Part shown: positions 41,633 through 61,355 of the stretch, one piece after another | Layout: the number at the start of each line of letters is the position of its first letter | Numbering within the stretch: the stretch's first letter is position 1 | NCBI RefSeq assembly: GCF_000203975.2 | Contig: NZ_AFCF02000008.1 | Span: forward strand, 372,001 to 436,000 | Direction: 5' to 3' | Origin: Leisingera sp. ANG1 | GTDB taxonomy: Bacteria > Pseudomonadota > Alphaproteobacteria > Rhodobacterales > Rhodobacteraceae | Length of the DNA stretch: 64,000 nucleotides | Program-made: the position numbers and the translations under genes | Notes under the pieces: model-generated | Seen by the model: the letters and a program-made list of their open reading frames with translations, nothing else | Database searches by the model: none | What the model was told of the DNA's origin: nothing

Positions 41633-41827
41633 GAAACCCGCCCCGGATGTACCGGGAGCGGGCTGTCTTAGGTTGCACTGAACAGTACCATTTCCTGGCT
41701 CTGGGCACAATCCAAGAGCATGCAATGCACCATGAACTTCTTCAGGTGCAACCGGCTGCAACTCAACGGGAGCACCGTGATTGCAACTGGTTGCAAAACT
41801 TCCTGACCACTCCCAATGCCCACTGCT

Positions 41828-43702: not shown

Positions 43703-43720
43703 ACTTTCTCACCGCGAAAG
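43632..43720 (+). repeat. Duplicated leader, copy 2
   Basis: This is a diverged copy of 41828-41920, overlapping the 3' end of the initiator-like gene and the first codons of the next small gene, which likewise starts MTCE. Confidence 0.7.
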
Positions 43721-44009: not shown

Positions 44010-44134
44010 AACGTGACAAGCATATCAAGCGGCACAGCAAACCTGTCACCAAGCCCATCCTCAACTTAACCGAAATCCTGGCGTTGAGGCTGTTACCCAG
44101 AAATTCTCGGCCCGCCAGCCGAACGTTCCCCCAG

Positions 44135-44428: not shown

Positions 44429-44494
44429 TTCCGCAACCATTTGAAACTGAAATTCCGCCAAACCTGATGAATGGACAAGCACTCGAGAACACTA

Positions 44495-45181
44495 TCACGT
44501 TCGCCTGGCTTTCGACCACGAGCAAGAACGCTTCAGTCGACAGTTGTCACAGGATGGGCTGCGCGCCTTACATACCGCGGCAGCGTAGTCGAGGACCGCC
44601 CAGTTCACCAGCTCAGGTCTCTCATGCTTCACGAGCCAAGTTGCAGCCTCTTGCAACCAAGGATCGTGGCGAATGTCGGCTAGCGAACGCGGGCGTACTA
44701 CGCGTTCTAAGACGCGAGCCATGTTTACATCTAGCAATGGCCGAACTTTCTTGTGCTGGAAAAGCAAGATCGCGTTCGAGACGTACTGCCCCACCCCAGG
44801 AATATTAGCATGTTTGAAAGCATCACTCGGGAAGACCCCGCCGTGGGCATCAGCGTAAGCCGCCAGGCCTTGAAGCGATGCCGCACGGCGCTTCCAAAGA
44901 CCGATTGGCTTCAAGTATGCTTCGAGCTCTTCGCGTTCGGCACGCGCTATTTGGCCCCACCCCGAGTACTGTCTAAAGAAGGCGTCGTACATTCGCGCAA
45001 CAGTTTCCGCTCGTGTGCGTTGGAGGAGGACTTCGACGCAGATCTTTTCAAAGGTGCTCGCACTTGGAGAGCGCCAAGGCAAGTGGCGCCCATGGCCTGA
45101 GTACCATGCGACTAGAGCGGCCCGGGTACGCGTGATACGCAATTTTTCACTTCGAGTTAGATGCGCATCGACCATATGCAC
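44495..45181 (-). CDS. HhH-GPD DNA glycosylase, probable T:G mismatch (Mig-type)
   Basis: The 228-residue endonuclease III/MutY-fold protein has the helix-hairpin-helix NIPGVGQYVSNAIL (127-140), the catalytic Asp151 (PLLDVNMARVL) and a 4Fe-4S loop with C204, C211, C214 and C220. At the residue that is Lys in Nth and Ser in MutY it has Tyr133, as in the thymine glycosylase Mig of Methanobacterium, with the same 18-residue spacing to Asp. It lacks the MutY C-terminal domain. Divergent from the methyltransferase, it would repair T:G mismatches left by deamination of 5-methylcytosine. Confidence 0.85.
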   Translation of the reverse strand: MHMVDAHLTRSEKLRITRTRAALVAWYSGHGRHLPWRSPSASTFEKICVEVLLQRTRAETVARMYDAFFRQYSGWGQIARAEREELEAYLKPIGLWKRRAASLQGLAAYADAHGGVFPSDAFKHANIPGVGQYVSNAILLFQHKKVRPLLDVNMARVLERVVRPRSLADIRHDPWLQEAATWLVKHERPELVNWAVLDYAAAVCKARSPSCDNCRLKRSCSWSKARRT

Positions 45182-45372
45182 TCAATACTTTTTCCCTTCA
45201 CAAAGTGTAGTCGATAATCCAGGACATCCAAACCCCGGAGCGTCCAGCTTGTCCCGAGGCAAACTGCCCCGCTAACCTTGCCCTCGAGCGTTGACGTGCC
45301 TGGTTTGCTCGACTAGACCAGGGCACCGCAAGCCGCTCGGCCCCGCGGAATGGCCCTTATTTGGGATGCACG
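45182..45372. promoter_or_regulatory. Divergent promoter region of glycosylase and methyltransferase
   Basis: The two genes diverge across 191 bases with no other reading frame worth calling. Their promoters must lie here, and the methyltransferase could regulate both by binding or methylating it. I did not identify a clear operator. Confidence 0.5.
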
Positions 45373-46812: not shown

Positions 46813-46817
46813 GTGGG

Positions 46818-46850
46818 TGGGCCAAGCCGAGTGCTGCTCTGCTTGGCCCA
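46818..46850. terminator. Shared stem-loop between convergent methyltransferase and DptH-like genes
   Basis: TGGGCCAAGC (46818-46827) pairs perfectly with GCTTGGCCCA (46841-46850) over a 13-base loop, in the 42-base gap between the two converging genes. T-runs are weak on both sides, so bidirectional termination is likely but not certain. Confidence 0.6.
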
Positions 46851-46854
46851 GCGC

Positions 46855-49800
46855 CTACCTTTTGAGTGAGAAGAAGGGTTGCCCCTTCATCAACACACCC
46901 TCGTTATTGTTGTTCATACAACGGTAATAGGCCCAGTGCGTCTGCAACTTGGTCACCTCAGTAACCATGTCTCCCACATTGCTCCGGAAACCAATCCCCT
47001 CGAACTGCTTGGCCGTAGCGTTACGCACGTTGTGAACGACCCAAGTCGAGAGTGCCTCTGCCCAGTTGTAGCTTCGCGTGTTGAAGTGCGAGAGGTATTG
47101 CGACGAAAGGATGACTCCCATGCCGAACTCCCGCCCTTCGAGCATCAATTTCATTAGCACTTCGAAGTCCCGTCCCATTGCGTGGTGCGCTTCGTCGATC
47201 AAAACGAACGAGTCCACGAAACGTCGGCTCTTCCCGTCGCCGCCAGTGATAAAGGGCTTTTTCTCCCGCGTTTTCATGTAGTCGGTGTACAGGTTGTCGA
47301 GGAACATCGTGGCAACGATGTCCACGATATCCTGTCCTGCACCCGAGATGCCCGAAAGGTTCAATACCGTACTGCGGTCGAATAGCTCCACGAAAGAACG
47401 CGTCTTGGACGGATCGCTCTCGAAGATCATCAAGTCAACGAGCATTCGCAGCACGGAAATCACGCTATCGTTTTTACCAAGTTCTTGGTAGGCCGCGTAA
47501 ACATCATTAATCGTCGGAAAAGAACCGTGGGGCGCCGAACTATATGCTGCGATAACACACCCGTATAGGTCATTTCGCTGGACGACACCTATGTTGGAAA
47601 TTCGGCGAAGGAGATCGCTGAAGAAATTCGCGCGCCGGACGCGTTCCATCTGGATGCTACCGTCCAACCGGTCAGTGTTGATCGCAAAGAAGTTGATAGG
47701 CAAGGGAGCCTTGGCTGGGTCCAAAACCTGCGCTCCGAGTGCAACCGGGTACTCTTTCTCGGAGTAGTCCCGCTTGTAATCAAAGATGAAAACCTTAGGG
47801 GCCGTTCCACGGTTGGCCGATGCCGAATTCGCGATCTGGTAGACCAACGATTTCAAGAACTGCGTCTTGCCCGTCCCTAGGTCGCCAACGACACCGATGT
47901 TCATCTGACTCAGTGAGGTCTCGCTTAGCTTGAGATGGATTGTCCGTTGCGTGCTGCCATGCGAGTAGTGCCCAACTAGGACCTCTATGCCCGCGTCGGC
48001 GGAAACATCCGCGGGTGCCAGCGTTGCCGAGGAAACCTGCTTTGTCGCCACTTCGGATTGCACTTTCACCGGCTCGCCCGCCCCGCGTACTGTAGGAGCC
48101 GCCGTGTTAGACGAGGCCACCTGCTCAGGTTGCTCCACTTCTGGCTCCGCCTCCTCTACCGGGGTAGGCTCGTTCGCCGAAACAGGCTGTCCAGTTCCTT
48201 CCGGGTTCGCCAAGGGGGCAAGGGCCTCCGCGTGGGCTTTCTTTCCCGGCAGGCCAGGCATTGTGCCAGCGCGTTCCAGCACGCCGTCTATCACGTCAGT
48301 GATCGCGACCTGCACGTGCCCTCCAACACTTGGGATGTTGAAAGCTGCTGGGTCAATGAGAACTCCGCCCGGTTCGCGACCCTCTGCAAAAAACAGGTCA
48401 AACGGGTCACCTTCCTCTGTGCGGCCACCGACCTGGAACCATAGGACGGTTCCACTTTCAGCGACGATCCGCGAATTTGATGATGCAACCGATCCAAGTA
48501 TCTGCGCTTCTAGTGCAGAATCGCTATTCGCTACCGATGGCCGCAAGGAAAGTGCGGCCTCCAAGAAGCTTGCGAACGCGGCCCAGGGCAAGACGCGGGC
48601 GCCCGCGGCATCAAGGTTCTTGGAAACTTGGCTCAGAACTTTGAACGTGCTTTCCAGTTGCTCGAGTGGGTCCTCGAGCTTGTTCCGCGCCGGGAACCGG
48701 CTGCTATGCCCGGTTCTCATTTTCACCTCGACCGGATGCATTCGAACCGTGCCGTTGCCCGCGTCGTCGACCATTGCGCTCAGCAAAAGCAGGTCCGCGC
48801 GCCGTTGGTCATCCGGTGTACGGGCGCCTTCTCCGAGGAGATCCAGCAGCGGGTAAACCGAATCCATGGGGACAACGCAGCGAATCTCACCTGGCGCAGC
48901 AGCCCCTTCCCAGTTCGCAAGCCCCCTAAATGCAAGGTTAAACCCGATAGCGCCGAGACTCTGGGTGTGCCCCATCGTCAGCAGCGACGAGAGGCCTACG
49001 CCCCGCATGCCGAGGCTGGTGATAACCTCGGTTGCATCCTCGTCCTTGTTGTGCACGCCGCAGTCGCCGAGAACACGCTTGATTTCGGTCGTGAGCGTTT
49101 TCGAAGGTTTGGCCAAGACCGTGTAGGGATGGGTCGAAGAAATAGCGGAGATCGCGTTTTTTTGGCGTTGCCGCGAAAGAAACGCCGGTCTCCATTCCCA
49201 CAGGGCCACGTCGGCACGGGACGCGCGGAGCTGAGAGGACAAGACCGCCGGGCTCAAGTTGCGGTTGCCAGTGATCGTCCACTTTGCATTCTCGCCCAGC
49301 ATGCGGTCACCTAGCTGCAAACGAGCCTCCATTCGGCACGCTTCCCCAGCGAGCTGCAAGCCCTCCAGCTTAGCAAGCACAGCGGAAAAACTCGCCAGCC
49401 CAGCAAAGGAGCGCCTCTCGATCCCCAGTCCAAAAGTCGACACACTATCGCTGGCGTGCGCCAACTGCCACGATCGAAAACGGTTCACAGGGAGGTTGGG
49501 CCCCGCGGTACAAGTGGCTTCAGTCTTCTCCTTGGCTACGTCCGTGCGTACGGTAACGACGCTGTCTTCAACAAATTGCAAGTCGACGTGGTGCTGGGTG
49601 AGAGACCCGGCATCTTCAGTCATCCATTCAAAGGGGGGCAAACTTCCACCGTCGCGGGCGTCACCCACGTCCTGAAGCCTAGCGAGAACACGGCTAGAAC
49701 TTGGCGGCGTTCCCTTTCTCTCGCTCGAGTCCACGATGCGAATCCCGCCAGGAAGCAGGCCTTCGCGTTCGCTCAGCAGGTTGACCGACGCGGCGATAAT

Positions 49801-52467
49801 CGCGTCATCGGTTTCTTCGAAGCGCTTGCCTCCTCTGGGCGCGGCAAGGCCAATTCGCAGATGCTGCGACGCGGGGAAAACCCGGAGGTAATCACGCAAG
49901 GCAGAGGACACCCCCCCTCGATCGAGGCCAGAAGGCGTTCCGAACGGCAAGTCCAGACCAAGCAACTTTAGGGACTGAGCCTGATTCGCTACCTCGAGCG
50001 GGAGGCTCGAAAGCATGCTCCATCCAACAAACATTTCCTGCGGCCCTGGGGCAAGCCCCGTGGACACCCAGGTCATACCCGTGTCCGTAGATGGGCCCGC
50101 CTCGGGGAACATCTCACCGTCGATGAACCGCAGGAAGGACCGTGAGACCTTGCCGAACACCGGGTCGTGGTTGATTTCCCCTCCAGCGGCCTGGACGCTC
50201 CACGCCCAGGCCAAGCGAACTGGGTGCAACGGCGACAGCAACACGCCCTTTGCCTGCCCCAACTGCGTGTCGAACAGCAGGGCAGAGAAAGGGTACGCAG
50301 CCCAGGAATTTGCCCGCGCACCCTTCGCCAGTTCCAAAATCGCACCGTAGGCCTCGATGTAAGCCTCGACCTTCTCGCGCGCGACGGTGCGTAGGTCCAA
50401 TGTGCTCGGTAGGGCGCGTACGGATTGCAGGCCAATCACAGGCTCATTGCCTAGCCCGAGGTTCAGGAAGGCTCTCCAAAAGCGATCCGCCGCAAGGGAG
50501 GCGGAGATATCCATTGGAAAAGTGACCGACCGCGCGCCATCAGTGTTCGTGAAGGCACCGAGCCCGTCATCCCATTGAAGGGAGGTTGCCCCCGGTCTTC
50601 TCCCGGCCTCGACGAGGCAACTTCCGAGGCATGCGCGGAACTGGTCACTTGGAGCGTCCAGAATTGCCTGATCGCGGAACCACTTCTCGAGATCTCCCCG
50701 CGGATCCAGCTCCATCTCTTCGTTCAGATCTTCGCTTGCGGCAATCACGGGCTCCGCCATGAACGCCGCGAGGAAAGGGTTGACTTGACCATTCTCGACG
50801 AGCGGAACGGTAATGTTGACCGTCTTGCCACCTAGATCGACAACAGGGTCGGCAGGCTGGCCGGTCAAATCGTAATAGTTGATAAAATCCGATTTGGTTC
50901 CTTCTGTCGGCTTGAGCTTTCCCCCTCCCACCCATGCCGGGTTTTTCACGTCTCCTACCACAACCAGTTCCGCCGTGCCGCCCTTGTCAGAAAGGGTCAA
51001 GTCTCGGTCGGGCGTACCGCCTTCGGGTTCGACTAGCGTGTTGTCACCATCAACGGCAAGAAACACGTCGCCCGAGAAGCTGGGCACTTGCCCTTTACCC
51101 TTACCCGTTGCTTCGACGACAAGCACACTGGGCACAACTGGGTTAGGCGAGAAGAGCTTCAACTCGAAGCTTTCGCGGAACTGCGAGCCCAATGTGGTCC
51201 GCGATGGGCTAACCGAAAGCGTAAAGGGTTTCTCACGCCACTTGCCGCCTTTCATGGCGATCTTCCGAGTCAGTTCGAACTCCAGTTCCAAAGCCCCGTC
51301 AACGGTGACGCAGGAAACGACCGTCGCCGCGCATGCACTCGCGGGCCTGCATTCCAACTTGGCACTTGGCTTATCGCCGGGATCGACCTCAAGCCGCAGC
51401 TTGTAGTAGCCGAGCAAAACGGTTCCGTCGTCTCGGCGAACCGGGGCAGCGGGAGGCAAGACATGGTCAACGCCGCGCCATTCAAGCCGGGGCATTTCCT
51501 TTTCCCCGCCGTTTCCTAGGGCCCAGAACTGGTAGTCGACCTCACCCTTCTTAGGCCTATCAAAAAACGCGGCTTCCGACGTTCCGGCCCAAGCATCCAA
51601 CCGTTCCTGTCCCCGCGATTTCCCGTGGAAGGCCAAGGCAAGCAGGCCATGCCCAAGCGAAGCTCGGCTTGCGACGAAGCCGGACCAGTCCAGCTTAGCC
51701 AACGGATGCTCTTCACCCTCTCCGTCGCTCTCCTGCACGCCCAGAAGCGAGAGCTCGATATCGTCGATCTCGCTCCATCCCTGCTGCACAATTTTCGCGT
51801 AATCTGACGGCCTATGATTCGACGCAAATCCCTCCTTCGACTTCGGCCGTGGCAGGCCCGCGCTGGCAAAAACCAAGAGGATCTCCCGGTTGGGAAGATC
51901 CCAAGGAAAGATTTTCAGGCCTAGCTCGAGGGCGTCGCAGAGCATGTCTAGATGTAGCCAGAACGCTTCTGTCCAACGCTTCTCCCCGTTCCCGGCTTCG
52001 CGATAAGCGGCGGCCAGGAAAGTAAAGACCGTCTGCAGAGCATTGGCCATTTCCGCCGTGTGAAAATCAAACTGCCGCGCCAAGATGTCGGCGGCTTGGC
52101 GCGCAATATCCGGTGCCTGCAAGATCGCCTGTTCGTCCGAGCTTAGCCCGCCAGGCAGGCCTCCAACCAAAACATCTCGGAAGGTTTCCAGCGATTTCAA
52201 CTCGCGCACATCGCCTTCTGTGGCAATGAGCAAGATTGAGGCCGCGGTCTCTCCGCCTTCTGGCGTACGGTAAGAGATGGCTTCACCCAGTGACAATTCA
52301 CCGGGCGCTGACCCTAAGCGCACTGGTGTTCCGCCGAGATCAGCCAATGCCGCGGAGAGGTCGGCCTTGAAAGCAGAGGGCAGTCCACGTGGGAGGATAA
52401 TCTTCGCCAACCCTTGGTTCTGGGCGCAGGCGCTCGCGATTGCCTCGGGGAGTAATTTTCTCTTCAT
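46855..52467 (-). CDS. DptH-like large protein: nuclease domain plus HerA-type ATPase
   Basis: The 1870-residue protein ends with a HerA/FtsK-type ATPase: Walker A GDLGTGKTQ at 1528-1536 (Lys1534), Walker B VLIDEAHHA near residue 1755, and a sensor-like VILSSQYLSHF. Upstream, ADLLLLSAMVDDAGNG...PVEVKMRTG fits a PD-(D/E)xK nuclease (Asp1225 or Asp1234, Glu1247, Lys1249). The first 1200 residues have no motif I can name. Size and layout resemble DptH, the ATPase of phosphorothioation-dependent restriction. It follows the DptG-like gene by two bases. An equally large ATPase of another restriction family remains possible. Confidence 0.7.
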   Translation of the reverse strand: MKRKLLPEAIASACAQNQGLAKIILPRGLPSAFKADLSAALADLGGTPVRLGSAPGELSLGEAISYRTPEGGETAASILLIATEGDVRELKSLETFRDVLVGGLPGGLSSDEQAILQAPDIARQAADILARQFDFHTAEMANALQTVFTFLAAAYREAGNGEKRWTEAFWLHLDMLCDALELGLKIFPWDLPNREILLVFASAGLPRPKSKEGFASNHRPSDYAKIVQQGWSEIDDIELSLLGVQESDGEGEEHPLAKLDWSGFVASRASLGHGLLALAFHGKSRGQERLDAWAGTSEAAFFDRPKKGEVDYQFWALGNGGEKEMPRLEWRGVDHVLPPAAPVRRDDGTVLLGYYKLRLEVDPGDKPSAKLECRPASACAATVVSCVTVDGALELEFELTRKIAMKGGKWREKPFTLSVSPSRTTLGSQFRESFELKLFSPNPVVPSVLVVEATGKGKGQVPSFSGDVFLAVDGDNTLVEPEGGTPDRDLTLSDKGGTAELVVVGDVKNPAWVGGGKLKPTEGTKSDFINYYDLTGQPADPVVDLGGKTVNITVPLVENGQVNPFLAAFMAEPVIAASEDLNEEMELDPRGDLEKWFRDQAILDAPSDQFRACLGSCLVEAGRRPGATSLQWDDGLGAFTNTDGARSVTFPMDISASLAADRFWRAFLNLGLGNEPVIGLQSVRALPSTLDLRTVAREKVEAYIEAYGAILELAKGARANSWAAYPFSALLFDTQLGQAKGVLLSPLHPVRLAWAWSVQAAGGEINHDPVFGKVSRSFLRFIDGEMFPEAGPSTDTGMTWVSTGLAPGPQEMFVGWSMLSSLPLEVANQAQSLKLLGLDLPFGTPSGLDRGGVSSALRDYLRVFPASQHLRIGLAAPRGGKRFEETDDAIIAASVNLLSEREGLLPGGIRIVDSSERKGTPPSSSRVLARLQDVGDARDGGSLPPFEWMTEDAGSLTQHHVDLQFVEDSVVTVRTDVAKEKTEATCTAGPNLPVNRFRSWQLAHASDSVSTFGLGIERRSFAGLASFSAVLAKLEGLQLAGEACRMEARLQLGDRMLGENAKWTITGNRNLSPAVLSSQLRASRADVALWEWRPAFLSRQRQKNAISAISSTHPYTVLAKPSKTLTTEIKRVLGDCGVHNKDEDATEVITSLGMRGVGLSSLLTMGHTQSLGAIGFNLAFRGLANWEGAAAPGEIRCVVPMDSVYPLLDLLGEGARTPDDQRRADLLLLSAMVDDAGNGTVRMHPVEVKMRTGHSSRFPARNKLEDPLEQLESTFKVLSQVSKNLDAAGARVLPWAAFASFLEAALSLRPSVANSDSALEAQILGSVASSNSRIVAESGTVLWFQVGGRTEEGDPFDLFFAEGREPGGVLIDPAAFNIPSVGGHVQVAITDVIDGVLERAGTMPGLPGKKAHAEALAPLANPEGTGQPVSANEPTPVEEAEPEVEQPEQVASSNTAAPTVRGAGEPVKVQSEVATKQVSSATLAPADVSADAGIEVLVGHYSHGSTQRTIHLKLSETSLSQMNIGVVGDLGTGKTQFLKSLVYQIANSASANRGTAPKVFIFDYKRDYSEKEYPVALGAQVLDPAKAPLPINFFAINTDRLDGSIQMERVRRANFFSDLLRRISNIGVVQRNDLYGCVIAAYSSAPHGSFPTINDVYAAYQELGKNDSVISVLRMLVDLMIFESDPSKTRSFVELFDRSTVLNLSGISGAGQDIVDIVATMFLDNLYTDYMKTREKKPFITGGDGKSRRFVDSFVLIDEAHHAMGRDFEVLMKLMLEGREFGMGVILSSQYLSHFNTRSYNWAEALSTWVVHNVRNATAKQFEGIGFRSNVGDMVTEVTKLQTHWAYYRCMNNNNEGVLMKGQPFFSLKR

Positions 52468-52469
52468 TT

Positions 52470-53933
52470 TTAGAATCCTGGCATGATCTCGAGTGCATCG
52501 TCCGCGTCGTGGCTACTACGGGCTAGGCCGTAACTTTCGAGGCGAGAAACGAGCGTTCTCTGTGATGCATCGATCCCGATCGAAGCAAGCGCTGAGGTGA
52601 GGTCTGTCATCCGGGACAGCTGCCCCGGCCCTCTGGCTTGTAGACTACTGATTGTGACCAGCCATTCCTGGCCCGGCTCTACCCATGTATACTTGCCCGC
52701 CGACTTCAGAAGCGCGTACAGATCTTGCTCACCGTCGCTGGACCGTGCCAGCAAGGAGTACCTGATGGTTTCCCATGTGTTGTTCGCGGTCCCCGACTTC
52801 TTCGCGGCCATCGCGGCCCCCACTTCTTGCTCGAACCCGGAGCGGCCCTTGCACACTTTTCGGGCCGCCTGTAGCCAAGAAGTCAAGCCATTTCCCTCTT
52901 GATCGAACTCGGCAAACGCGGGAACCGCCTCGCCATCCTCCGACACGAGATCATTGATGAGCTCCCTGCAGGCGCTTCCGGAATCAGCTAGTTGGCGAAC
53001 AATCGGCCCAACGTCAGCGGCGCTCTTCTGCATGAGATCATCCCAAGAGAAGAGCCGATTGCTGTCGTCCATCATCGACCGAACGGCGTCTCCCGCATCT
53101 TCCTCGGTAATCAGAGCGGCACATAGCCGACGGTAGAGGTGCATCTCGAACATAAACCCAGTCGCCAAGGCGGTCCGAGCCACACAAGATGCCCAGTCTG
53201 TCCAGCGACGGCGCGGCATCTGGTCAACCCATCCCCGTTCGCAAAGATTGTCCCAGGCTCCTGCAAACCACGAGTACGGGGTGTTGCTGGGCAGCCAACG
53301 CGGCTGACGGAGATCCTTGATCACATGAGAGGGGCCGTGCTGCTTCACGGTTTGGACGATGGCGTCCATGTCACCAGGAGTCACTCCTGCAAAGAAATCC
53401 CGGATCCATGCGGGCATCCCACCACCCGAGGGCGACATGACCGCACTTGTCCAACCAGCAGCAACAGACGTTTTCCCACCGCCGAGCGCGTACATCTTCT
53501 CTAGGTTCAGCGCCAAGTTAGCTGGGTTTCTCTTACCCGTTATACCACGTAGATCCTGCAAGAGTGCGGTTTCGATACTAAGAGGCGTCGCTGCCGACCG
53601 AAGGGCTTTGCTCGAATACGGTGCTTCAAGCTCCTCTAGGAGGATCGAAACGACTTTCGCGGCACTGTTACGGTCGCGCGCTTTCCTCCCATTGACTAGG
53701 GCCGTGCAGAGGTCTTCGAATTTCTTCGATCCGTGCTCCGGCCTCGTGAACTCGAAACCGGCCTTTGCCTTGGCGCTCAACTCCCCGTAGGCATAGCCAG
53801 CAAAACCGGCTTTTTTCTCTTGTCGCTTGTTTACATTCCTCTCGACCGACCACGCCAGCTCGGACATGAACAGTTCCCGCGAAGGCGGGTATTCAGGTCG
53901 ATTAAGTCCGAACAACGAGACATTCTTTGCCAT
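52470..53933 (-). CDS. DptG-like middle component
   Basis: A 487-residue protein with no catalytic motif that I can identify. It has mostly helical, polar sequence with a Gly-rich turn (MYALGGGKTSVAAGW near residue 145) that is not a P-loop. Its identity is inferred from position between the DptF-like and DptH-like genes and from its length. AAGGAG, overlapping the upstream TAA, precedes its ATG. Its stop lies two bases before the next start, so the three proteins are made together. Confidence 0.55.
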   Translation of the reverse strand: MAKNVSLFGLNRPEYPPSRELFMSELAWSVERNVNKRQEKKAGFAGYAYGELSAKAKAGFEFTRPEHGSKKFEDLCTALVNGRKARDRNSAAKVVSILLEELEAPYSSKALRSAATPLSIETALLQDLRGITGKRNPANLALNLEKMYALGGGKTSVAAGWTSAVMSPSGGGMPAWIRDFFAGVTPGDMDAIVQTVKQHGPSHVIKDLRQPRWLPSNTPYSWFAGAWDNLCERGWVDQMPRRRWTDWASCVARTALATGFMFEMHLYRRLCAALITEEDAGDAVRSMMDDSNRLFSWDDLMQKSAADVGPIVRQLADSGSACRELINDLVSEDGEAVPAFAEFDQEGNGLTSWLQAARKVCKGRSGFEQEVGAAMAAKKSGTANNTWETIRYSLLARSSDGEQDLYALLKSAGKYTWVEPGQEWLVTISSLQARGPGQLSRMTDLTSALASIGIDASQRTLVSRLESYGLARSSHDADDALEIMPGF

Positions 53934-53944
53934 CGAAAAACTCC

Positions 53945-55951
53945 TTAACGCGTCTCGTCATAGTTGCGGTCCGAGAAATTGAACCTATTCCTGTCACCCC
54001 CAGAGTGCATCTGTGCGGCGACCATCGCCGCGCGCAGCCGTTCAATACGAGGCTCGATTATTAGGCGACTGTCGGTGAACCCGTGGCCTTCAAGCCCCGC
54101 CATGGCCTCGCGCAGCAGGTGAAAATCAAGAGAGGTTACCGCGGAAGCGTGATCCTCGCGCTGCGACCGAAGACGGATCTCGAGTTCCACTCGGTCTCCT
54201 TCGACGCGGGCGGACAAGTTCATGTCGTTGCGCGGGATCTCGATACGGACCTTTGGTGCATTGGGTTCACCTTGCGTCACACGAGGCTGCAAGAATGTGA
54301 ACATCGCCTTGTGCGCGCCCTCGGAAACTGGCGCGACGATCTCAAGAATGGCATCCTCCAGAGACGCGTCCAGCCGCCCACTTGAAAACGCGTCCAACCA
54401 CGTTTCTTGCCAGGCCGTGACAACGGAAACGTAGGCCGGCCAACCGCGAACTAGTGCGACGAGCCGATACATATACCGCCCGTACCACGACAGTAGATTG
54501 CTACGCTCCTTGAGGGCCAAGCCGGATTCCTTGTCCGGGTCAATCGCTTCCTGTACGATTTCTTCGATCCGAGCATCCAGTTTTCCCCAGTACGCCCCAA
54601 CGGCTTCGTCCCTGGACACTAGGTCAGCTCCGGGGTATTTCCCATCTTTCAACCCATCCAAGGCTTCGTCGATGTCAGCGCTGCCATGCCCAGTAGATGG
54701 GCCAAAATGCTTCAAGGGATCTGCGAAATGGACCGCCTTCATGGCATCGCTGGTGGTTCTCGGCCAATTAAAGATGTTGGCTTCGCCCCCCGTGCTAGAA
54801 GCTCCAGCCTCGAACAACATCATGTGCGAACGAAGGTTTCCCAGCGCAACGGCACCCGCGACCCGTTCTCTGATGCCCTTGGATTGGATCTTTTCGAGGC
54901 TCTCTGCTACGTGCCGGGCAAGGCGAGACATGGTATCGCTACTTGCCGGGCCAACCAGCGAGTGCGCCGAGAGAGCCCAGAGCTCACGGTAGCTGAAGTG
55001 CGTGCCAGAAAGGATCTCGGCCCCACGCATCAATGAGCACCACCCCCGTGCCACGATATCCTTTGACAACGAGCGCGCATTCGCAGCGATCGGGTCCAGC
55101 TCATCCAGCCGCAATTCCTTTTGAAAATTGCGGGCAAGATTAGTCAGGCAGGGTTCAAACGCCGTTGCCACGTCGGCACGCTCAACACCGCCAAGCGGCG
55201 TCACGCGCAGTTCGACCGTCGGCAAAGCTGCATCTGCCTGTTCCATCAGGGGCGGTTCGGGCCAATTCTCGAGAAGCGAGGCGCTGTCCATATACACGAG
55301 GTGCAAGACCGCGGTTACCTTGCCCGCCGCGCGCACTTTGGCAAACTGGTAGTTGCCACCCTCTTGCCCCACAACCAAGTCCAGGCAGGGCTCCTCCGCA
55401 CCTTGACAGCGCAATTCGCCATTCAGCAGCCAGGCAACAATATCCGAAGCAACTTTCTCGTCGTCGTCCTTCAACTTTGACCGCTCCGACTGCTCGCCAA
55501 TGAGAACACCGCGGTTAATGCACCCAAGAAAGTGTTCCTTGCCGCGCAGCGCACTGGCGATATCTCTCCTGAGAGCAGAACCTTGCCGATCGACAGGAGG
55601 AATGGTCGCATCATTCAACACCCGCAGAGCACGCCCGTTCGGCAAGTCGAACTCGTAGCAACGCTGGGCAAAAACGCTCCCCCCCCCTTTCCGGATCCCG
55701 CGCACATTCGCCACTACTTCGGCCGCAAGTTTAGATTTACCGTTGCCTGCCCCACCGACAAGAAACACCATGTGGGCTGGGCCTAAAGTATCAGACGCAG
55801 AGCAAGCCATCATCATGGCTCGGCAGGCTTCGGAGGACATCGGGGAGGACCGTCCATTTGGCCACTTTTCGCCGGATGCGGCATAAACCGGGGAAACCGC
55901 GACTCCGAGCCCCCCGAACGAACGCTCCAGGATCCAACTTGGGTAAGACAT
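53945..55951 (-). CDS. DptF-like P-loop ATPase
   Basis: The 668-residue protein has a Walker A motif GGAGNGKS (66-73) preceded by a hydrophobic strand (HMVFLV) and is otherwise of unknown fold, a layout matching DptF of phosphorothioation-dependent restriction. Its start at 55951 has GAGGG upstream, and the AT-rich 55952-56100 interval should hold the promoter for the three-gene operon. Its stop overlaps the ribosome-binding site of the next gene, 11 bases from that start. Confidence 0.65.
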   Translation of the reverse strand: MSYPSWILERSFGGLGVAVSPVYAASGEKWPNGRSSPMSSEACRAMMMACSASDTLGPAHMVFLVGGAGNGKSKLAAEVVANVRGIRKGGGSVFAQRCYEFDLPNGRALRVLNDATIPPVDRQGSALRRDIASALRGKEHFLGCINRGVLIGEQSERSKLKDDDEKVASDIVAWLLNGELRCQGAEEPCLDLVVGQEGGNYQFAKVRAAGKVTAVLHLVYMDSASLLENWPEPPLMEQADAALPTVELRVTPLGGVERADVATAFEPCLTNLARNFQKELRLDELDPIAANARSLSKDIVARGWCSLMRGAEILSGTHFSYRELWALSAHSLVGPASSDTMSRLARHVAESLEKIQSKGIRERVAGAVALGNLRSHMMLFEAGASSTGGEANIFNWPRTTSDAMKAVHFADPLKHFGPSTGHGSADIDEALDGLKDGKYPGADLVSRDEAVGAYWGKLDARIEEIVQEAIDPDKESGLALKERSNLLSWYGRYMYRLVALVRGWPAYVSVVTAWQETWLDAFSSGRLDASLEDAILEIVAPVSEGAHKAMFTFLQPRVTQGEPNAPKVRIEIPRNDMNLSARVEGDRVELEIRLRSQREDHASAVTSLDFHLLREAMAGLEGHGFTDSRLIIEPRIERLRAAMVAAQMHSGGDRNRFNFSDRNYDETR

Positions 55952-56204
55952 TCCGCCCTCTCGCGTGATTAGTTAAAGCTCTTTCCTATAGATTGAGCCT
56001 ATGGAATTTAAGCTGCGATCACCAGAGAAGAAAAAACCCCCTTTCCTGCTGATAACATTAAAAAACAAAGCACCTCGTTGAAAAAATGTCGCAATCAAAG
56101 CGAGTAATCATACCCGATAACAAAGCTAAATCCGCTTGGCACGCAAGCCCCCTTCCTCACCCTGCCCACGACAATCAGCCGCAGCAAAACGCTGCTTCAC
56201 TTTG

Positions 56205-56396
56205 CCCAGCCAGATGTCCGAGTGCATGTCGCGCCTGATCGCGGATGCCTACGCCACAGGCAAGCTGAAGCGACTGATGCTGACCGGTATGACGGAGCAG
56301 GAAACCCTTGCCCTGATTGGTCAGCGCCGCGCCCGGAAGCGGTTGAAAGTGGAGGTCAACCGGAAAACGCAGGAGGCCAACCGAGCGTCTTCACGG
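56205..56396 (+). pseudogene. Remnant of a second initiator-like gene
   Basis: The frame encodes RLIADAYATGKLKRLMLTG, TLALIGQRRARKRLK and EVNRKTQEANR, matching the C-terminal part of the initiator-like protein at 41891 (RLVADAYATGELDRLI, ALAMIGEGRARKRMR and EINRKTREANR) with an internal deletion of about 13 codons. Everything before and after is lost, and it runs straight into the right copy of repeat A. The remaining open frame (56136-56522) is not a credible gene. Confidence 0.7.
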
Positions 56397-56641
56397 TCTG
56401 CGCAACGGAAAAAATTTAGGAATGTCAGAAGTAGGTGCAACCAGTTGCAAATCCCGCCGAAAGGCACTCTTGCAACACCACCACGGGCGCCCCACGCCGA
56501 AGCGGAAGCACATGCATTGTGACAGTTTAGGGTAACAGCGGCAGTTTTACGCCCGGCAACCAAGCGGTCTTGAAGGGAGAAGGCATCGGCAAACCAGCCC
56601 GATATGGGACCCAACTGACAGAACACAATAACAGCGACCCT
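56397..56641 (+). repeat. Backbone direct repeat A, right copy
   Basis: This is a diverged, same-orientation copy of 44135-44428, ending at the same GCGACCCT word and including one dispersed palindrome (56436-56449) and GGGACCCAACTGACAGAAC. With the initiator remnant it marks the right edge of the 12-kb cargo insert. The 56642-56979 stretch after it has no convincing gene. Confidence 0.8.
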
Positions 56642-56875
56642 CGAGGAAACACAGCTCTTCCCCCAGACCGCCGAGAGCAACCAGTGTTTGGCTCTCTACA
56701 TTTGTAAGACTACCGTCGTCTTATTCTGGCCGCTGGCAGCTTTTTACGGATTTGTCACCGCTCGACTACTTGGCTGGCAACCTAACTCAGCAGAGAAACT
56801 TCTGCCGTTCAATAGCAGGTCCCGAACCACTCCCCCCCCAAACGCAAACAATTGTTTTTACTTATATTTCTTCCA

Positions 56876-56899
56876 AGTTTGGCACCAAATTGCTAAACT
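56876..56899. promoter_or_regulatory. Inverted repeat upstream of the tail gene
   Basis: AGTTTGGCA, six bases, TGCTAAACT (8 of 9 arm positions match) lies about 80 bases upstream of the tail assembly gene start, in an AT-rich stretch that otherwise has no gene. It is a candidate operator or promoter element. Confidence 0.45.
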
Positions 56900-56979
56900 G
56901 GCATAGAGAAAACCGTCCTGCACCGCCCACCCCTATCACGTGCCGAAGCGTTGCAACCAGTTGCAAAGGAAAAGACAGA

Positions 56980-57620
56980 TGAGCATTCAAAAGGTCATGC
57001 TCTACGGCCACCTAGCTGAGAAATTTGGCGGTGAACTTCCCATCAAGGGCAACACCCCTACCCGTGTCATTCAGATCATTGAGGCGAACTTTCACGGCCA
57101 GTTCTACAATGCCCTGAAGGTGGGAGAATATTTTGTCTGGAGCGAAAGAGCTGACGGCACGGAACGGGGTTACGGGACAGCCGAAGACCTCACTATGTCC
57201 ACTTCGGATGAAGTTCTCCATATCATGCCACGGATTGAAGGCGCATCCAGCAATAAGGGAGGGATAACGGCGGTCTTGGGCTTAGTTTTGATTGGGGTTG
57301 CCATCGTTGCCAGCAATGGCGCAGCAGCCGGACTGGTCGGCAGCCTGGATACTGCACTTGCCAGCGGCGGTCTCGCGAGCACTGCCGCACACATGGGTAT
57401 CGGAATGGCCCTGTCCGGCATCGGCCTCATGCTCTCACCCATGCCAGAGTTGAACATCGACAACGACCCAGACGACCAGCAACAGTCCTACATTTTGGGC
57501 GGGCCGATCAACACAATGTCCGAAGGCGGAGCGATCCCGGTAATTTACGGCGCCCCCATCGTGGGCTCGACGGTAATCTCCGCGGGCGTCAGTATCGAAC
57601 TGCTTGCAGTGGACGAGTAA
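56980..57620 (+). CDS. Lambda gpI-like phage tail assembly protein
   Basis: The 213-residue protein starts with VMLYGHLAEKFGGELPIKGNTPTRVIQIIEANF, the beta-grasp-like start of the lambda tail assembly protein I family. A Gly/Ala-rich hydrophobic stretch follows (GGITAVLGLVLIGVAIVASNGAAAG, from residue 92), then GGPINTMSEGGAIPVIYGAPIVGSTVISAGV, matching the conserved end of that family. It is the only phage structural-type gene in the element. A palindrome and GGAAAAG precede its ATG; a second palindrome follows its stop. The longer frame upstream crosses the palindrome. Confidence 0.85.
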
Positions 57621-57637
57621 TTTGCAACGGGTTGCAA

Positions 57638-58204
57638 GCTAGTTGGAAACCGCCATCTCAGCCCGCGCTGGATGCTGCAAACACACTCGGCTGCTCGCAG
57701 CCCGGAGCAGACATAGACATGGCCGCGGGTGCCAAAGATGCTGTCGGTGCAAAATTCCATGGTCAATTTCCTGAAAGCGGACCCTCGGCAGGGCCGAGCT
57801 ACCTCATGTGATGCTGCGGGGCGCACCAGGGGCCGCGGAGCGCAGGAAGCCGCCGCTGCAAAGTTGCGAACCGTCTTCGCCTTTCGGAACCTGACCGGCC
57901 CATAACAGACATCCCATACCGTCACGTAAGCTGCGATGCGGCGTCTCCGAACCGGTCGTTCGTCCCTCGCGCATTATCCCGACTCCACCGAATGACAGGA
58001 GCGCGGAGAAAGCTGAGGTTGCCTCAGGTATGCACAGACACGATCCATTTGCGGAGCCGATCTAACCAACGCTAGTTGTTGGCCTTAGTCTTTTTCCCCA
58101 AATCCGATGGTCAGCGCTTCCAGGTATTTTTGAAGTTTCATATTTCTAAGGTTGGAAACGACAAAAGCAATTGTTAATTTGCGCAGCAATCATGTGTCAT
58201 CAGA
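57638..58204. other. Gene-free stretch of 567 bases
   Basis: I find no credible gene, tRNA or mobile-element end here. It begins right after a palindrome copy. Its GC content is high in the first half and falls towards 58.1 kb, so it may be the junction between backbone and the AT-rich second cargo. Confidence 0.5.
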
Positions 58205-58870
58205 TTAGAATAGAATAGCATTCTGGAGGTTTCTTCGATTGGTTCGAGTAAATCTAAAAAACTCTTCAAGATCGCCAATGAGAACTGTCGAGAAGGATGC
58301 CGAGATGGAAATTGCGACTACTAATCTTTGAGCTGTCGCACTATACCAATTTACTTCCACATCATTGCTCTCTTGAATGCGGCCACTCCAATTTGGATGC
58401 ACTGCCTCACATAGAACACCATAAACTGCCATCATTCCATTCTGCATCTTTTCAGAATTCCGAACCGCATCCATGACATTCGGCGTCTTTTGCTGGGACA
58501 AACCACTGAACTCCAGAGATGCAAATATGTACGAACTCAAGACTCGCTTGATCTCATCTCCATCCACTCTCTTGACCGCGGATTTGAACTTTCGAAAGAA
58601 ATCGGCAAGTACTGCCATTGTCTCAAGACCTGCACGCGCCGATGCAGCAGCACCAAGTAATCTTCCGTCGCCCACGAGCACTGCGGTGTCATCTAGAAGC
58701 GCTGAAACACGCATCAAATTTCGCTCAACATACTGCTCAACGTCGGCCTCAATACCAAGATCTGTACCCCACTCGAAACGCCCAGACACAGCTTTTTCGG
58801 CCAACGAAGTGCCTGCGGAAGACACTATCTGCTGGCATTTTTCTCTGGGGATTGCTGATGGCTTATTCAA
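58205..58870 (-). CDS. Small helical partner protein (HEPN/DUF5677-like, tentative)
   Basis: The 221-residue, mostly helical protein contains GRLLGAAASARAGLETMAVLADFF near residue 69 and YGVLCEAVHPNWSG near residue 150. This resembles the substrate-binding-type helices and the HPN turn of DUF5677/HEPN-like proteins, but I see no RxxxxH nuclease motif. It starts with TTG (58868-58870), which overlaps the upstream TGA stop (58867-58869) as TTGA, so translation is probably coupled to the RNase III-like gene. The function is unknown. Confidence 0.6.
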   Translation of the reverse strand: MNKPSAIPREKCQQIVSSAGTSLAEKAVSGRFEWGTDLGIEADVEQYVERNLMRVSALLDDTAVLVGDGRLLGAAASARAGLETMAVLADFFRKFKSAVKRVDGDEIKRVLSSYIFASLEFSGLSQQKTPNVMDAVRNSEKMQNGMMAVYGVLCEAVHPNWSGRIQESNDVEVNWYSATAQRLVVAISISASFSTVLIGDLEEFFRFTRTNRRNLQNAILF

Positions 58871-60651
58871 CTTGACGCCTCCAAAATGCCAAGCTTCTGC
58901 AACATTTTGAAAGCCGCTGTGTTCTTGGCCCAGACAAAGCGGCTACTGGACGCTCTCGTTGAATTTCCCTCATACTCACAGATTGCTGTGTGGGTAGCTG
59001 CGTGGATCGGCCCTGAAGTTATCTTGGAGTACATAGGCAGCACAGGAGATTTCTGCTGTACGTATTCTTGCAAAACAGTAACGTATGAGAACTTTTCGTC
59101 GAATTGCTCTGGTAACCTCCTATCCCCATCTGGACGACCTGCCGTTTCAGAGAACACGCTTTGCACCCGAAGCCATGCTTTCATCTTCCCAAAGAACTTG
59201 TCCTGTTCGTTTATGAACAAAGCGAACAGTAGGGCTTGGGCCATTTGACGATCTGCGTTTACTCCCCAATCATGTATTGGCTCATATATTGAGCGACTCA
59301 ATTTTCTTAGCTGAAATCTCTCAATGGCTGCATCACAAATCCGCGGGTGAACACCTTCAACGCTCAAGCTTCTAAACTCAGAATCGCTGTTGATGATGGA
59401 AAACTCCAGAGCGAGCGCTCCTATGCGACTAGTGATTTCATTATCAGGCATTCTGTTGTATCGCGAACGTCCCGCGCTCTTCGTCTTCAATGCCTGCATC
59501 AATCTAAAGTAGTCAGGCTGGAGACCAAGTTCCTTATTGACCTCATTCGCAAGATCAAAGACCTCTTGCGGTATAGACCGCGTTGAGATCGGTTTTTTCT
59601 CCTTTTCAACTGATGCTGACTTTTTAGCTAGGAGGCGCATCAATGATTTGCGGCTCTCCTTGTGCCGCTTCAGTGCAATTATTGCCGTCTCAGCAAGCTT
59701 TTTTGAGCCCTCCTTCTTTGATTTCGCGCTAACACTAACCTCGCCAATTCTTGAAAGTTGCAAACTGACGTGAAATATAGGGTCGTGGTCAGGGGTGTTT
59801 GGGTCCCGCTTATACTGATATGAAGGAAGTTGGAGACCTAAATCTTGCGCATATTCCTGCAAGAGTGTTTTTGCGTCGCCAAACTCAATATCTTCCGCGA
59901 AGGTTTCTAGGAAGTTTTTGGGATCAAGACTTGTAAGAACGAACTCTTTCGCCTTAAAAAAACCTTCATATAGGAAGAGGGCGTGAACCAGCTTCTTGTA
60001 CGCCTTGTCGAGTAGACCTTTTTCCTCCGTGAACCCTCTGCCAACGAGTGGGGTCCCCAGCTGTTTGTCTACCCAAAAGCGCTCGGTCAGAGCATAGCTA
60101 CCAAGATAATTGCACGCATTCGCAAATGCACCCACACTCTTGTTTTCTACCCACTTGGTTTCCAAGAGGTAGAGCGACAAAATGAGATCAATCAGCGCCT
60201 TACCGGCTGTTGGTGATGGCATAGATCGGACATTTCCAGAAAGCCCCGCGCGGCGATAAACGCGCGAGAAGTCTGTCTGAAATGAAGGGTGATAAAGGGC
60301 AACCGCAATCTCATTAGCCTGATCTTCGCCTCCACGAACTCTAGAGAGTTTTTCCAAAAACTCTATGCATCTATTTGAAAAGAGTTCCTCTGTGGACTTA
60401 ACGTCTTCGATTGCCGTCCATTTCCTTTCAAACCTTGAAAGCTCCTCGCGGAACTTTTCTTCAACTGACGAATTCAGGGTTTCTAGAGCCGCGGTTAAGC
60501 CATGTAGCTCCGCGTCTTGTTTGACGTCGTTTAAGCTATGCGAACTTTGAGCGGTGCCATTCTTTTCATTCCTCCCCAAGGTCCAATCTCCGCTCTTTTC
60601 CAAGTGACTATCTTTGATGAGCAGACTGCCGTGTTGAGCACCTGTTAGCAA
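58867..60651 (-). CDS. Tandem degenerate RNase III / dsRNA-binding protein
   Basis: The 594 residues read as RNase III-like 1 (about 95-245; ALYHPSF as in the family's ALTHPSY), dsRBD 1 (258-328; AKTLLQEYAQDLGLQLPSYQ, SKKEGSKKLAETAI), RNase III-like 2 (about 380-495; LMQALKTKSAGRSRYNRMPDNE) and dsRBD 2 (523-590; VTVLQEYVQQKSPVLPMYS, KNTAAFKMLQKLG). Catalytic acids are mostly replaced: where RNase III has LEFLGDAVL and ADAFEAL, this has KALIDLIL and DKAYKKL, then TSRIGALAL and RQMAQALLF. It should bind but not cut dsRNA. The TTG at 60651 is the only upstream start and is uncertain. Confidence 0.65.
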   Translation of the reverse strand: MLTGAQHGSLLIKDSHLEKSGDWTLGRNEKNGTAQSSHSLNDVKQDAELHGLTAALETLNSSVEEKFREELSRFERKWTAIEDVKSTEELFSNRCIEFLEKLSRVRGGEDQANEIAVALYHPSFQTDFSRVYRRAGLSGNVRSMPSPTAGKALIDLILSLYLLETKWVENKSVGAFANACNYLGSYALTERFWVDKQLGTPLVGRGFTEEKGLLDKAYKKLVHALFLYEGFFKAKEFVLTSLDPKNFLETFAEDIEFGDAKTLLQEYAQDLGLQLPSYQYKRDPNTPDHDPIFHVSLQLSRIGEVSVSAKSKKEGSKKLAETAIIALKRHKESRKSLMRLLAKKSASVEKEKKPISTRSIPQEVFDLANEVNKELGLQPDYFRLMQALKTKSAGRSRYNRMPDNEITSRIGALALEFSIINSDSEFRSLSVEGVHPRICDAAIERFQLRKLSRSIYEPIHDWGVNADRQMAQALLFALFINEQDKFFGKMKAWLRVQSVFSETAGRPDGDRRLPEQFDEKFSYVTVLQEYVQQKSPVLPMYSKITSGPIHAATHTAICEYEGNSTRASSSRFVWAKNTAAFKMLQKLGILEASS

Positions 60652-61268
60652 TGGTTTCGGTCCGAGTTGTCTTCAGAAAGCCCTTCGGCTAGTGAGATAG
60701 ACGCAGCGCGGATCTGGTTCGACGCTATGGGCTTTCCGATGCTCGTAGAATGGGCTCAAAGCGACCTTGTTGACTGCGCAGCACCGGCGCGTTGAGTGCT
60801 TCAATACTTACGCGCTGTCGGCCCTGTGCGAACATTAGCCAGGATAGTCATCGCCGCGGCGCGGTTTCCACTAACCCGCCTTTCGTAGCATCGTGCAGCA
60901 AGGTCCGGCAGTCCAAGGTCCGCATCCCTTCCGTTCGATGATGGTTGGTGGCTGCACCTGCGGCGAAGGTCTGCTCCTTTAATTGCTCGTGCAGCATGGG
61001 ATCGCCGCCCGGCTGGCAGATCCCAAGACTTTGCAAACGTCGCTGTCTGCGCTTGGGCGTCACTCGGTCCTGCCCAGGCTGCGCGCGCAGCGAAAGTTGG
61101 CTTGGTCCCGCATCTTGCCAGTCAGTGAACGTCTGGGCTGCCCACCTCCAGCCCAACTTAGCACTTCCAGCAATCAAACGCGTTGCATGGCAAAGGGTGG
61201 ACCAAGGGGTGTATACGCTTACCCAACAACCGATAAGATATTGAAAGAAATGATATTTTAAGGAAAGT
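60652..61268. other. Gene-free stretch at the right end of the element
   Basis: 617 bases between the RNase III-like gene and the attachment site. I find no credible gene. The promoter of the minus-strand operon must lie in its left end. The middle part (60850-61150) is GC-rich, with short open frames that match nothing I recognise, perhaps decayed DNA. Confidence 0.5.
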
Positions 61269-61282
61269 TGGTGCGGTCGAGA
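61269..61282 (+). repeat. Right attachment repeat (att)
   Basis: TGGTGCGGTCGAGA, identical to 39213-39226. It is the reverse complement of the last 14 nucleotides of tRNA-Leu, CCA included, so integration leaves the tRNA gene intact. Confidence 0.85.
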
Positions 61283-61355
61283 AGACTCGAACTTCCACTC
61301 CGGTTAAGGAACAGCGACCTCAACGCTGCGCGTCTACCAATTCCGCCACGACCGC
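61269..61355 (-). tRNA. tRNA-Leu (GAG), integration target
   Basis: On the minus strand it folds as a class II tRNA: acceptor GCGGTCG/CGACCGC, discriminator A with encoded CCA, anticodon stem CAGCG/CGCTG around TTGAGGT (anticodon GAG), long variable arm, and T arm GGAAG-TTCGAGT-CTTCT. It reads CUU/CUC leucine codons. Its 3' end faces the mobile element, the usual position for tyrosine-recombinase integration. Confidence 0.95.

What the first reader, a model, noticed from the sequence alone, without database searches (positions are those of the whole stretch)
58205..60651. Two-gene module built on a double pseudo-RNase III / double dsRBD protein
Seen: RNase III-like, dsRBD, RNase III-like, dsRBD in one 594-residue chain, a Dicer-like order, with the catalytic acids replaced mostly by Lys, Ser or Ala. 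It is coupled by a TTGA overlap to a 221-residue helical protein. Located as AT-rich cargo of an integrated element. Inference: a dsRNA sensor whose partner may be the effector or regulator, possibly an anti-phage or regulatory system.
Basis: partly seen in the sequence, partly recalled or inferred. Interest (0 to 1): 0.88.

Follow-up and report, generated by a model that had tools for sequence, protein, structure and literature searches.

The report
Mobile dsRNA-binding dead-nuclease gene pair
A mobile DNA element carries two overlapping genes: one encodes a protein built like the RNA-cutting enzyme RNase III but with its cutting residues replaced, the other a helical partner; the same pair turns up in one other bacterium, so it looks like a real but rare accessory system that may grip double-stranded RNA without cutting it, possibly to detect infection.

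Summary
Partly confirmed. The 594-aa protein (P1) has two clear dsRNA-binding domains and, before the first, an RNase III-like domain whose four catalytic carboxylates are gone (E41→P, D45→K, D114→K, E117→K). The second "RNase III-like" domain is not established: alignment is suggestive, but sequence statistics are at chance and models are low-confidence. The partner (P2) is a small protein related to DUF5677 proteins. The strongest new evidence is recurrence. A Bosea MAG carries both genes in the same order, also overlapping (P1 about 23%, P2 about 28% identity), with the acids again lost (A/K/R/F), in a 40% GC patch within 69% GC DNA. No other P1 was seen in 1,879 genome look-ups for P1 or P2 (overlapping sets; 505 used P2 only). 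In the window the pair is cargo of a 22-kb element in a tRNA-Leu gene, a site empty in 12 of 20 congeners, on the same element as a DndH/SspF-like gene set. Most likely P1 binds dsRNA or structured RNA without cutting and controls P2 in a mobile host-parasite conflict module. RNA binding, sensor and effector roles are inferred, not shown. No family or system searched here covers the pair.

The parts
58867..60651 (-). P1, 594-aa protein: N-terminal helical part, pseudo-RNase III domain, dsRBD1, about 160-aa helical domain, dsRBD2 (TTG start; true start may be up to about 35 codons further in)
59884..60390 (-). P1 residues 88-256: RNase III-like domain without catalytic acids (E41>P147, D45>K151, E65>V173, D114>K216, E117>K219; E. 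coli numbering)
   Evidence: N-terminal helices (residues 101-150, block pLDDT 45-62) low confidence
59662..59877 (-). P1 residues 259-330: dsRBD1; by eye keeps LQE, the PDHDP loop and SKK...KK
   Evidence: (pLDDT 87-96 over 261-330)
59089..59571 (-). P1 residues 361-521: helical domain, possibly a strongly degenerate second RNase III domain (not established)
58888..59085 (-). P1 residues 523-588: dsRBD2; by eye keeps LQE and GPIHA, lacks the KKxAK cluster
58205..58870 (-). P2, 221-aa DUF5677-like partner; positions kept in 8 of 8 aligned rows include R54, R79, E83, Y150, L153, E155, H158, P159, N160, G163
58867..58870 (-). 4-base overlap of P1 stop and P2 start (translational coupling likely, inferred)
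39213..61268 (.). integrated element carrying the pair near its right end
39213..39226 (.). left direct repeat of 14 bp, copy of the tRNA-Leu 3' end
61269..61355 (-). tRNA-Leu (GAG), integration target; its 3' end 61269-61282 is the right repeat
39355..40557 (+). tyrosine integrase of the element (Arm-DNA-bind_3, Phage_integrase)

Best explanation
A rare, horizontally moved two-gene accessory module. Shown by sequence: P1 is a relative of RNase III with a dead RNase III domain plus two dsRBDs, and in both known copies it is followed by a DUF5677-like partner, P2. Inferred: P1 clamps double-stranded or strongly structured RNA without metal-dependent cleavage, because acids that repel RNA in the catalytic valley have become Lys/Arg or neutral. 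It thereby acts as the RNA-sensing or RNA-holding subunit that recruits, restrains or releases P2. The likeliest biological setting is host-parasite conflict: phage or mobile-element dsRNA (convergent or antisense transcripts, or replication intermediates of RNA phages) triggers P2 to limit infection.
For: Domains. Four catalytic acids lost in both homologues (0 of 8 retained; 0 of 10 with E65), with D45 basic in both (K/K) and D114 basic in both (K/R). E117A and E117Q in E. coli RNase III remove Mg-dependent cleavage but not dsRNA binding (passage of PMC6121014). Removing the acids E38 and E65 from the valley stabilises the RNA complex (passages of PMC9291653). The pair recurs with the same order and overlap in a Bosea MAG, in a patch of 40% GC against 69%. 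In the window it is cargo of a tRNA-Leu element; that site is empty in 12 of 20 congeners and P2 was found in 0 of those 20. The element also holds DndH/SspF-like genes.
Against: No functional data. PADLOC has no model for either protein. Only two copies are known, so 'defence' rests on location. The net charge of the dead domain is not raised (P1 -2, homologue -4; 24 RNases III -7 to +2), and dsRBD1 of the homologue is acidic (-5), which argues against strong RNA binding there. P2 has no family match above noise and no relative among solved structures. Of 8 P2-like loci outside the window, 5 have no P1 within 4 kb on either side and 2 are cut too close upstream to tell. The Bosea copy lies among chromosomal genes, not in a recognised element or defence island.
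Confidence: 0.42

Rival explanations
1. P1 regulates the host's own RNase III: the dead domain forms a heterodimer with, or competes for substrates of, the housekeeping enzyme, changing host or phage RNA processing; P2 stabilises or positions it.
For: RNases III work as dimers, and non-catalytic partners of active RNases III are known in trypanosome editing complexes (passages of PMC9508840). The same genome has an ordinary RNase III (L002: second match, 29% identical; one search identifies it as RNase III).
Against: Interface residues could not be assessed; the partner P2 is unexplained; P1 may pair with its own C-terminal half if that half is RNase III-like.
Confidence: 0.2
2. Toxin-antitoxin-like pair: P2 is toxic and P1, alone or with a bound RNA, neutralises it; the pair serves element maintenance as well as defence.
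For: Two overlapping genes, mobile cargo, sparse distribution. P2-like genes elsewhere lie near a RES-domain gene (L043) and a DUF6602 gene (L040).
Against: P2 relatives occur without P1 (5 of 8 loci with at least 4 kb read on both sides), so P1 is not a general antidote; P2 itself gave no toxin-family match.
Confidence: 0.16
3. Element-serving RNA binder: P1 protects or controls the element's own structured or antisense RNA (replication, excision or transfer control) and has nothing to do with phage.
For: Located near the end of an integrated element.
Against: In Bosea the pair lies between uvrA and chromosomal-type genes; none of six neighbouring frames scanned with Pfam is an integrase or other element gene.
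Confidence: 0.12
4. Decaying paralogue of RNase III without function.
For: All catalytic acids lost; AT-rich; rare.
Against: Two copies with about 23% identity both keep long frames of 594 and 566 aa, two dsRBDs and the overlapping partner.
Confidence: 0.05

Closest known systems
Bacterial RNase III (Rnc)
   Same: First RNase III-like domain followed by a dsRBD; alignment over that half; Gly of the LGD and EG signatures kept
   Different: Four catalytic acids and E65 replaced; 594 aa; further helical domain and second dsRBD; mobile, with partner gene
mL44 (MRPL44) of mitochondrial ribosomes (name and inactivity recalled)
   Same: Mitoribosomal large-subunit chains rank among the model's matches (3j6b_5 Z 11.8, rmsd 11.1, 177 aligned; 6vlz_c Z 11.4, rmsd 11.0, 246 aligned); I take them from memory to be RNase III-dsRBD proteins without catalysis
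   Different: Ribosomal protein of eukaryotes; P1 is a bacterial mobile gene with two dsRBDs and a partner
KREPB6-8 of trypanosome editing complexes
   Same: Non-catalytic RNase III proteins that work through a partner (PMC9508840 passages)
   Different: They pair with active RNases III and use zinc fingers; P1 has two dsRBDs
Dicer / Drosha
   Same: RNase III and dsRBD parts; ranked among the model's matches (9aso_A Drosha Z 11.8, rmsd 6.7, 200 aligned); possible RNase III-RNase III order
   Different: No helicase or PAZ match, no catalytic acids in the first domain, a dsRBD between the two halves, second RNase III domain unproven
DUF5677 proteins (PF18928)
   Same: P2's relatives match this family (7 of 8 aligned members) and share R79xxxE83 and E155xxHPN motifs with P2
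   Different: P2 itself gives no DUF5677 match; 5 of 8 relatives outside the window clearly stand without P1

Membership tests
RNase III | catalytic carboxylates E41, D45, D114, E117 | tested here: not met
   0 of 4 kept in P1 and 0 of 4 in the homologue (three MAFFT modes agree for D45, D114, E117; E41 aligns to P147/A109 in two modes and to G136/H99 in the third)
RNase III | RNase III fold plus C-terminal dsRBD in the first half | tested here: met
   helices before residue 150 uncertain, the model used RNase III rows, and the homologue's domain alone is weak by PSSM (19 of 300 shuffles as good)
RNase III | curated equivalog score (TIGR02191) | tested here: not met
   59.1 against cut-off 166.25
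Dicer-type RNase III | two RNase III domains in one chain | tested here: inconclusive
   second domain at chance by PSSM and hhalign; low-confidence model matches an isolated RNase III domain (1jfz_B, Z 10.2, rmsd 3.7, 134 aligned) but was made with RNase III rows
Dicer-type RNase III | helicase and PAZ domains | tested here: not met
   only dsrm in Pfam at E up to 10
dsRNA-binding domain proteins | dsRBD (PF00035) above gathering score | tested here: met
   52.2 bits against 23, 2 stretches; homologue 45.1 bits, 2 stretches
dsRNA-binding domain proteins | binds dsRNA | not testable with these tools
   needs protein; by eye dsRBD1 keeps canonical residues and dsRBD2 lacks the lysine cluster; dsRBD1 of the homologue has net charge -5
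DUF5677 (PF18928) | Pfam gathering score | tested here: not met
   P2: no DUF5677 match at E up to 10; relatives L029 and L030 20.8 and 25.3 bits against 27.1
DUF5677 (PF18928) | homology to members | tested here: met
   phmmer of P2 against L041 2.5e-17, L042 8.8e-10, L044 1.1e-8 in 750 frames; 7 of 8 aligned members match the family
Described anti-phage systems (PADLOC 2.0.0) | profile match | tested here: not met
   0 families for P1 and P2 at E up to 1; among 8 P2-family members, PD-T4-7 and HEC-02B match one member each at E 0.035 and 0.042 only

The most novel reading that the evidence does not exclude
A bacterial dsRNA-sensing immune module: a pseudo-nuclease whose active site has turned from acidic to partly basic acts as a non-cleaving dsRNA receptor and switches on a DUF5677-like effector, a prokaryotic counterpart in logic to animal dsRNA receptors, built on a tandem, Dicer-like pair of dead RNase III/dsRBD halves.
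Probability: 0.27. Interest if true: 0.93.

Novelty: new variant of a known kind. Interest (0 to 1): 0.66.

Why it matters
RNase III is widely used as a cutter. Dead RNase III proteins are known from eukaryotic organelles (recalled; KREPB6-8 seen), and the paper searches named in the report listed no bacterial, mobile, two-gene one. If P1 reads dsRNA, bacteria would have a dedicated dsRNA receptor with an actuator. Whether bacteria guard against dsRNA in that way becomes directly testable with two small genes. It could also give a function to a branch of the DUF5677-like proteins.

Tried and rejected
Homologue searches that gave nothing beyond RNase III-like or weak partial matches: P1 peptides in genome contigs (28 stretches, 0 relatives) and viral contigs; P2 peptides in viral contigs; tblastn of P1 in plasmids and phages, of P2 and of P1's C-terminal part in plasmids; the Bosea homologues in plasmids, phages and viral contigs; the pair profiles in viral contigs (105 and 81 stretches, 0 relatives). 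Whole-genome look-ups for P1 or P2 (1,879 in all, sets overlap, not distinct genomes) found P1 only in the window's own genome and the Bosea MAG. They were own, 394 family (the 70 other genomes match only within residues 197-397), 61 relatives (P2 only), 385 class, 398 phylum, 377 order of Bosea (P2 only), 67 genus of Bosea (P2 only; one more P2-like gene, L047, no P1 beside it) and 196 order (two other matches, positions 192-345, frames of 262 and 293 aa, not examined further). In one search the seven further matches are weak: L029 and L030 led on to the P2 family, L033's matched stretch is a POTRA piece by Pfam, L025, L031 and L034 are RNase III, L032 was not identified. In one search L025 and L026 are RNase III and L024 was not identified.

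Second RNase III domain: PSSM test, hhalign with single and paired sequences and two structure models do not establish it. The first job left the C-terminal half without aligned rows; the second used RNase III rows, so its match is partly circular. In VIA-align many matches have rmsd of 6-15 A over two domains, and the tool warns that Z under about 13 can be a common arrangement for helical folds.

A reading of P2 as a HEPN nuclease was considered from memory: by eye no R-x4-6-H motif lies at its conserved histidine; nothing was tested. Literature searches in the held library: searches found 0 papers; one search found 1 paper with DUF5677 (on Salmonella case severity; listing only); held 307, 237, 106 and 34 papers, of which I saw 15, 15, 15 and 10 in the listings; none of those listed is on such a module by title and start of abstract. 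I read passages of three papers only.
Full report
Observation. The minus-strand frame 58867-60651 encodes 594 aa (P1) and ends in a TGA that overlaps the TTG of the 221-aa frame 58205-58870 (P2) by four bases. Pfam finds only the dsRNA-binding motif in P1 (E 9.3e-14, 2 stretches) and nothing above noise in P2 (best E 0.11). NCBIfam adds RNase III, TIGR02191, at E 4.4e-16 in two stretches, well below that family's cut-off. An HMM built from 25 RNase III sequences (24 distinct; one gene was held twice) matches P1 at 206-329 (57.2 bits) and 523-588 (29.5 bits) (the E-values printed there are for a target set of 3 sequences).

First RNase III domain. MAFFT aligns the catalytic domain of ordinary RNases III to P1 up to residue 256. 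A PSSM of 161 catalytic-domain columns scores it above 300 of 300 shuffles (z 4.0); the homologue's domain is weaker (19 of 300 shuffles as good). hhalign of the catalytic part alone gives a probability of only 4.5% for P1 alone and 17-22% for the two-sequence profile, so the support comes mainly from its C-terminal half joined to the dsRBD. AlphaFold2 with 15 RNase III rows gives block-mean pLDDT of 63-92 for residues 151-250 and 87-96 for 261-330, but 45-62 for residues 101-150. VIA-align matches it to RNase III structures: the Campylobacter nuclease domain 3o2r_A (Z 11.5, rmsd 3.8, 125 aligned, model 91-248), the Mycobacterium one 2a11 (Z 11.2, rmsd 3.9, 129) and E. coli RNase III 7r97_A (Z 11.2, rmsd 6.7, 192); Dicer, Drosha and mitoribosomal chains rank alike, several with rmsd above 10. 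Because RNase III rows were in the alignment, this is confirmation, not independent discovery.

Catalytic site. In E. coli numbering the catalytic acids are E41, D45, D114 and E117 (passages of PMC6121014 and PMC9291653). In P1 they read P147, K151, K216 and K219; in the homologue A109, K113, R178 and F181. All 24 reference enzymes have E at E41 and E117 and D at D45, and 23 of 24 have D at D114. E65, another acid of the RNA valley, is V173 and H137. One of three alignment modes places E41 elsewhere, also on non-acids; E38 could not be placed reliably (R133 in P1; Q102, or E96 in one mode, in the homologue). So the domain cannot use the two-metal mechanism, and two positions are basic in both copies. 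Published work says E117A and E117Q stop Mg-dependent cleavage without harming dsRNA binding, and that removing E38 and E65 from the valley stabilises the RNA complex. The inference is a grip-not-cut protein. Against a simple charge argument, the net charge of the domain is not higher than in RNases III, and dsRBD1 of the homologue is acidic.

Second half. The stretch between the two dsRBDs (361-521) has about the length of an RNase III domain and aligns plausibly: the Gly of LGD is kept in P1, the homologue and 12 of 12 RNase III rows. But the PSSM score is at chance (110 of 300 shuffles as good in P1, 201 of 300 in the homologue). hhalign with the two-sequence profile gives probabilities of 0.1-0.3% (global score 6.8 against 100 column-shuffled decoys of mean 3.2, sd 1.8, maximum 10.2). 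The model is low-confidence without RNase III rows (blocks 41-60) and with them (blocks 39-64). That second model matches RNase III structures, including an isolated nuclease domain (1jfz_B, Z 10.2, rmsd 3.7, 134 aligned), but the rows were RNases III. I call it unproven.

Partner. P2 has no Pfam, NCBIfam, PADLOC or PDB relative above noise on its own. Positions kept in all eight rows include R54, R79, E83, Y150, L153, E155, H158, P159, N160 and G163. A profile of the eight found no solved structure better than E 0.3.

Recurrence. A scan of the 84,980-species genome collection with P2-family peptide patterns returned five loci. In one of them, a Bosea MAG (L041), the frame just upstream is a P1 homologue: phmmer E 1.4e-26 over 750 frames, in two stretches (P1 57-327 and 504-584; the part between is not matched locally), with two dsrm stretches in Pfam. 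Its P2 homologue (E 2.5e-17) starts at a TTG overlapping the P1 stop by 8 bases, unless a downstream ATG is used. Identity is about 23% for P1 and 28% for P2. The two genes form a patch of 40% GC in 69% GC DNA, between uvrA and, further on, IalB-, GidA- and phytoene synthase-type genes; none of six neighbouring frames scanned is an element gene. Of 8 P2-like loci outside the window (L029/L035, L030/L036, L040, L041, L042, L043, L044, L048), 1 has P1 beside it, and it is the closest relative; 5 have none within at least 4 kb on either side; 2 (L030, L044) lie 897 and 322 bases from a contig start, so an upstream P1 cannot be excluded. L045 is the same gene as L030 and was not counted; L037 (E 2e-4) was dropped because its matched stretch is a POTRA piece by Pfam. 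Both known P1 genes have P2. Searches of 394, 61, 385, 398, 377, 67 and 196 genomes found no further P1 (three of them, 505 genomes, asked for P2 only).

Setting. In 12 of 20 congeners the left flank and the tRNA-Leu lie 196-216 bp apart. In 3 (G404, G407, G412) 7-31 kb lies between them. In 1 (G401) the tRNA piece lies 0.3 kb off on the other strand. In 4 (G238, G398, G405, G409) the pieces fall on different contigs or are split and do not settle it. In the window the distance is 22.3 kb (my reading of the listed positions). P2 was found in none of these 20. A 14-bp copy of the tRNA 3' end at 39213 marks the other end, just before a tyrosine integrase. The element also carries a C5 cytosine methylase and a three-gene set whose large protein ends in a DndH-like part (E 1.3e-61) and whose third matches SspF weakly (E 7e-4). 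GC is 47% for the pair, 57% for the element left of it and 65% for the window left of the element.

Mechanism. Shown by sequence: domains, loss of the acids, linkage, location on an element. Inferred: RNA binding, control of P2, immune role. The preferred model is a dsRNA- or structured-RNA-responsive accessory module in host-parasite conflict; confidence is moderate because nothing functional is known and only two copies were found. Main rival: modulation of the host RNase III by a dead partner, as in trypanosome editing complexes (passages of PMC9508840).

Known or new. No model in PADLOC 2.0.0 matches either protein at E up to 1. P1 gives one family of unknown function in PHROGs, best over residues 212-327, the RNase III-like half. 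Searches of the held papers showed no description of such a pair among the listings I saw; those listings were capped, and subscription papers and most preprints are not in that library. I rate it a new variant of a known kind (inactive RNase III/dsRBD proteins), with a categorically new sensing system as the bold reading.

Noticed in passing
window 39213-61268: A 22-kb element in tRNA-Leu(GAG) with 14-bp repeats; the same site holds other inserts of 7-31 kb in three congeners (G404, G407, G412), so it is an integration hotspot.
   Followed up: yes
window 45361-55951: C5 cytosine methylase next to a 1870-aa protein with a DndH-like C-terminal ATPase part (also mad8-like, E 5e-11), a 487-aa protein without match and a 668-aa weakly SspF-like protein. 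No modification gene of the phosphorothioate type showed up among the ten element frames scanned with Pfam: possibly a restriction cassette paired with cytosine methylation.
   Followed up: partly
window 56940-57620: A phage tail assembly protein gene (phrog_32, E 4.1e-39) inside the element; none of the other element frames scanned (Pfam, PHROGs) is a tail gene. Could interfere with phage tail assembly or be a relic.
   Followed up: partly
window 40538, 41782, 44174, 44221, 56436, 56952, 57623: A palindromic motif of the type TGCAACTGGTTGCA/TTGCAACCAGTTGCAA occurs seven times in the element (family D2), like the operator of an element regulator.
   Followed up: no
window 43067-44428 and 56232-56641: Two stretches of the element are diverged copies of each other (pieces 77-82% identical, families D1, D4, D5, D6).
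   Followed up: no
L035:6775-9713: A P2-like gene lies next to a thymidylate synthase-like gene and an aGPT-Pplase3/ADDT gene, that is, phage-type DNA base hypermodification.
   Followed up: no
L043:5286-8817 and L040:3838-6979: P2-like genes near a RES-domain gene and near a DUF6602 gene.
   Followed up: no
L041:3912-6692: The interval between uvrA and the next matching block also holds 1.9-3.6 kb in the eleven other Bosea-group genomes for which I read both places; the downstream block occurs in several copies per genome, so the comparison is rough, but the pair may sit in a variable spot there too.
   Followed up: partly
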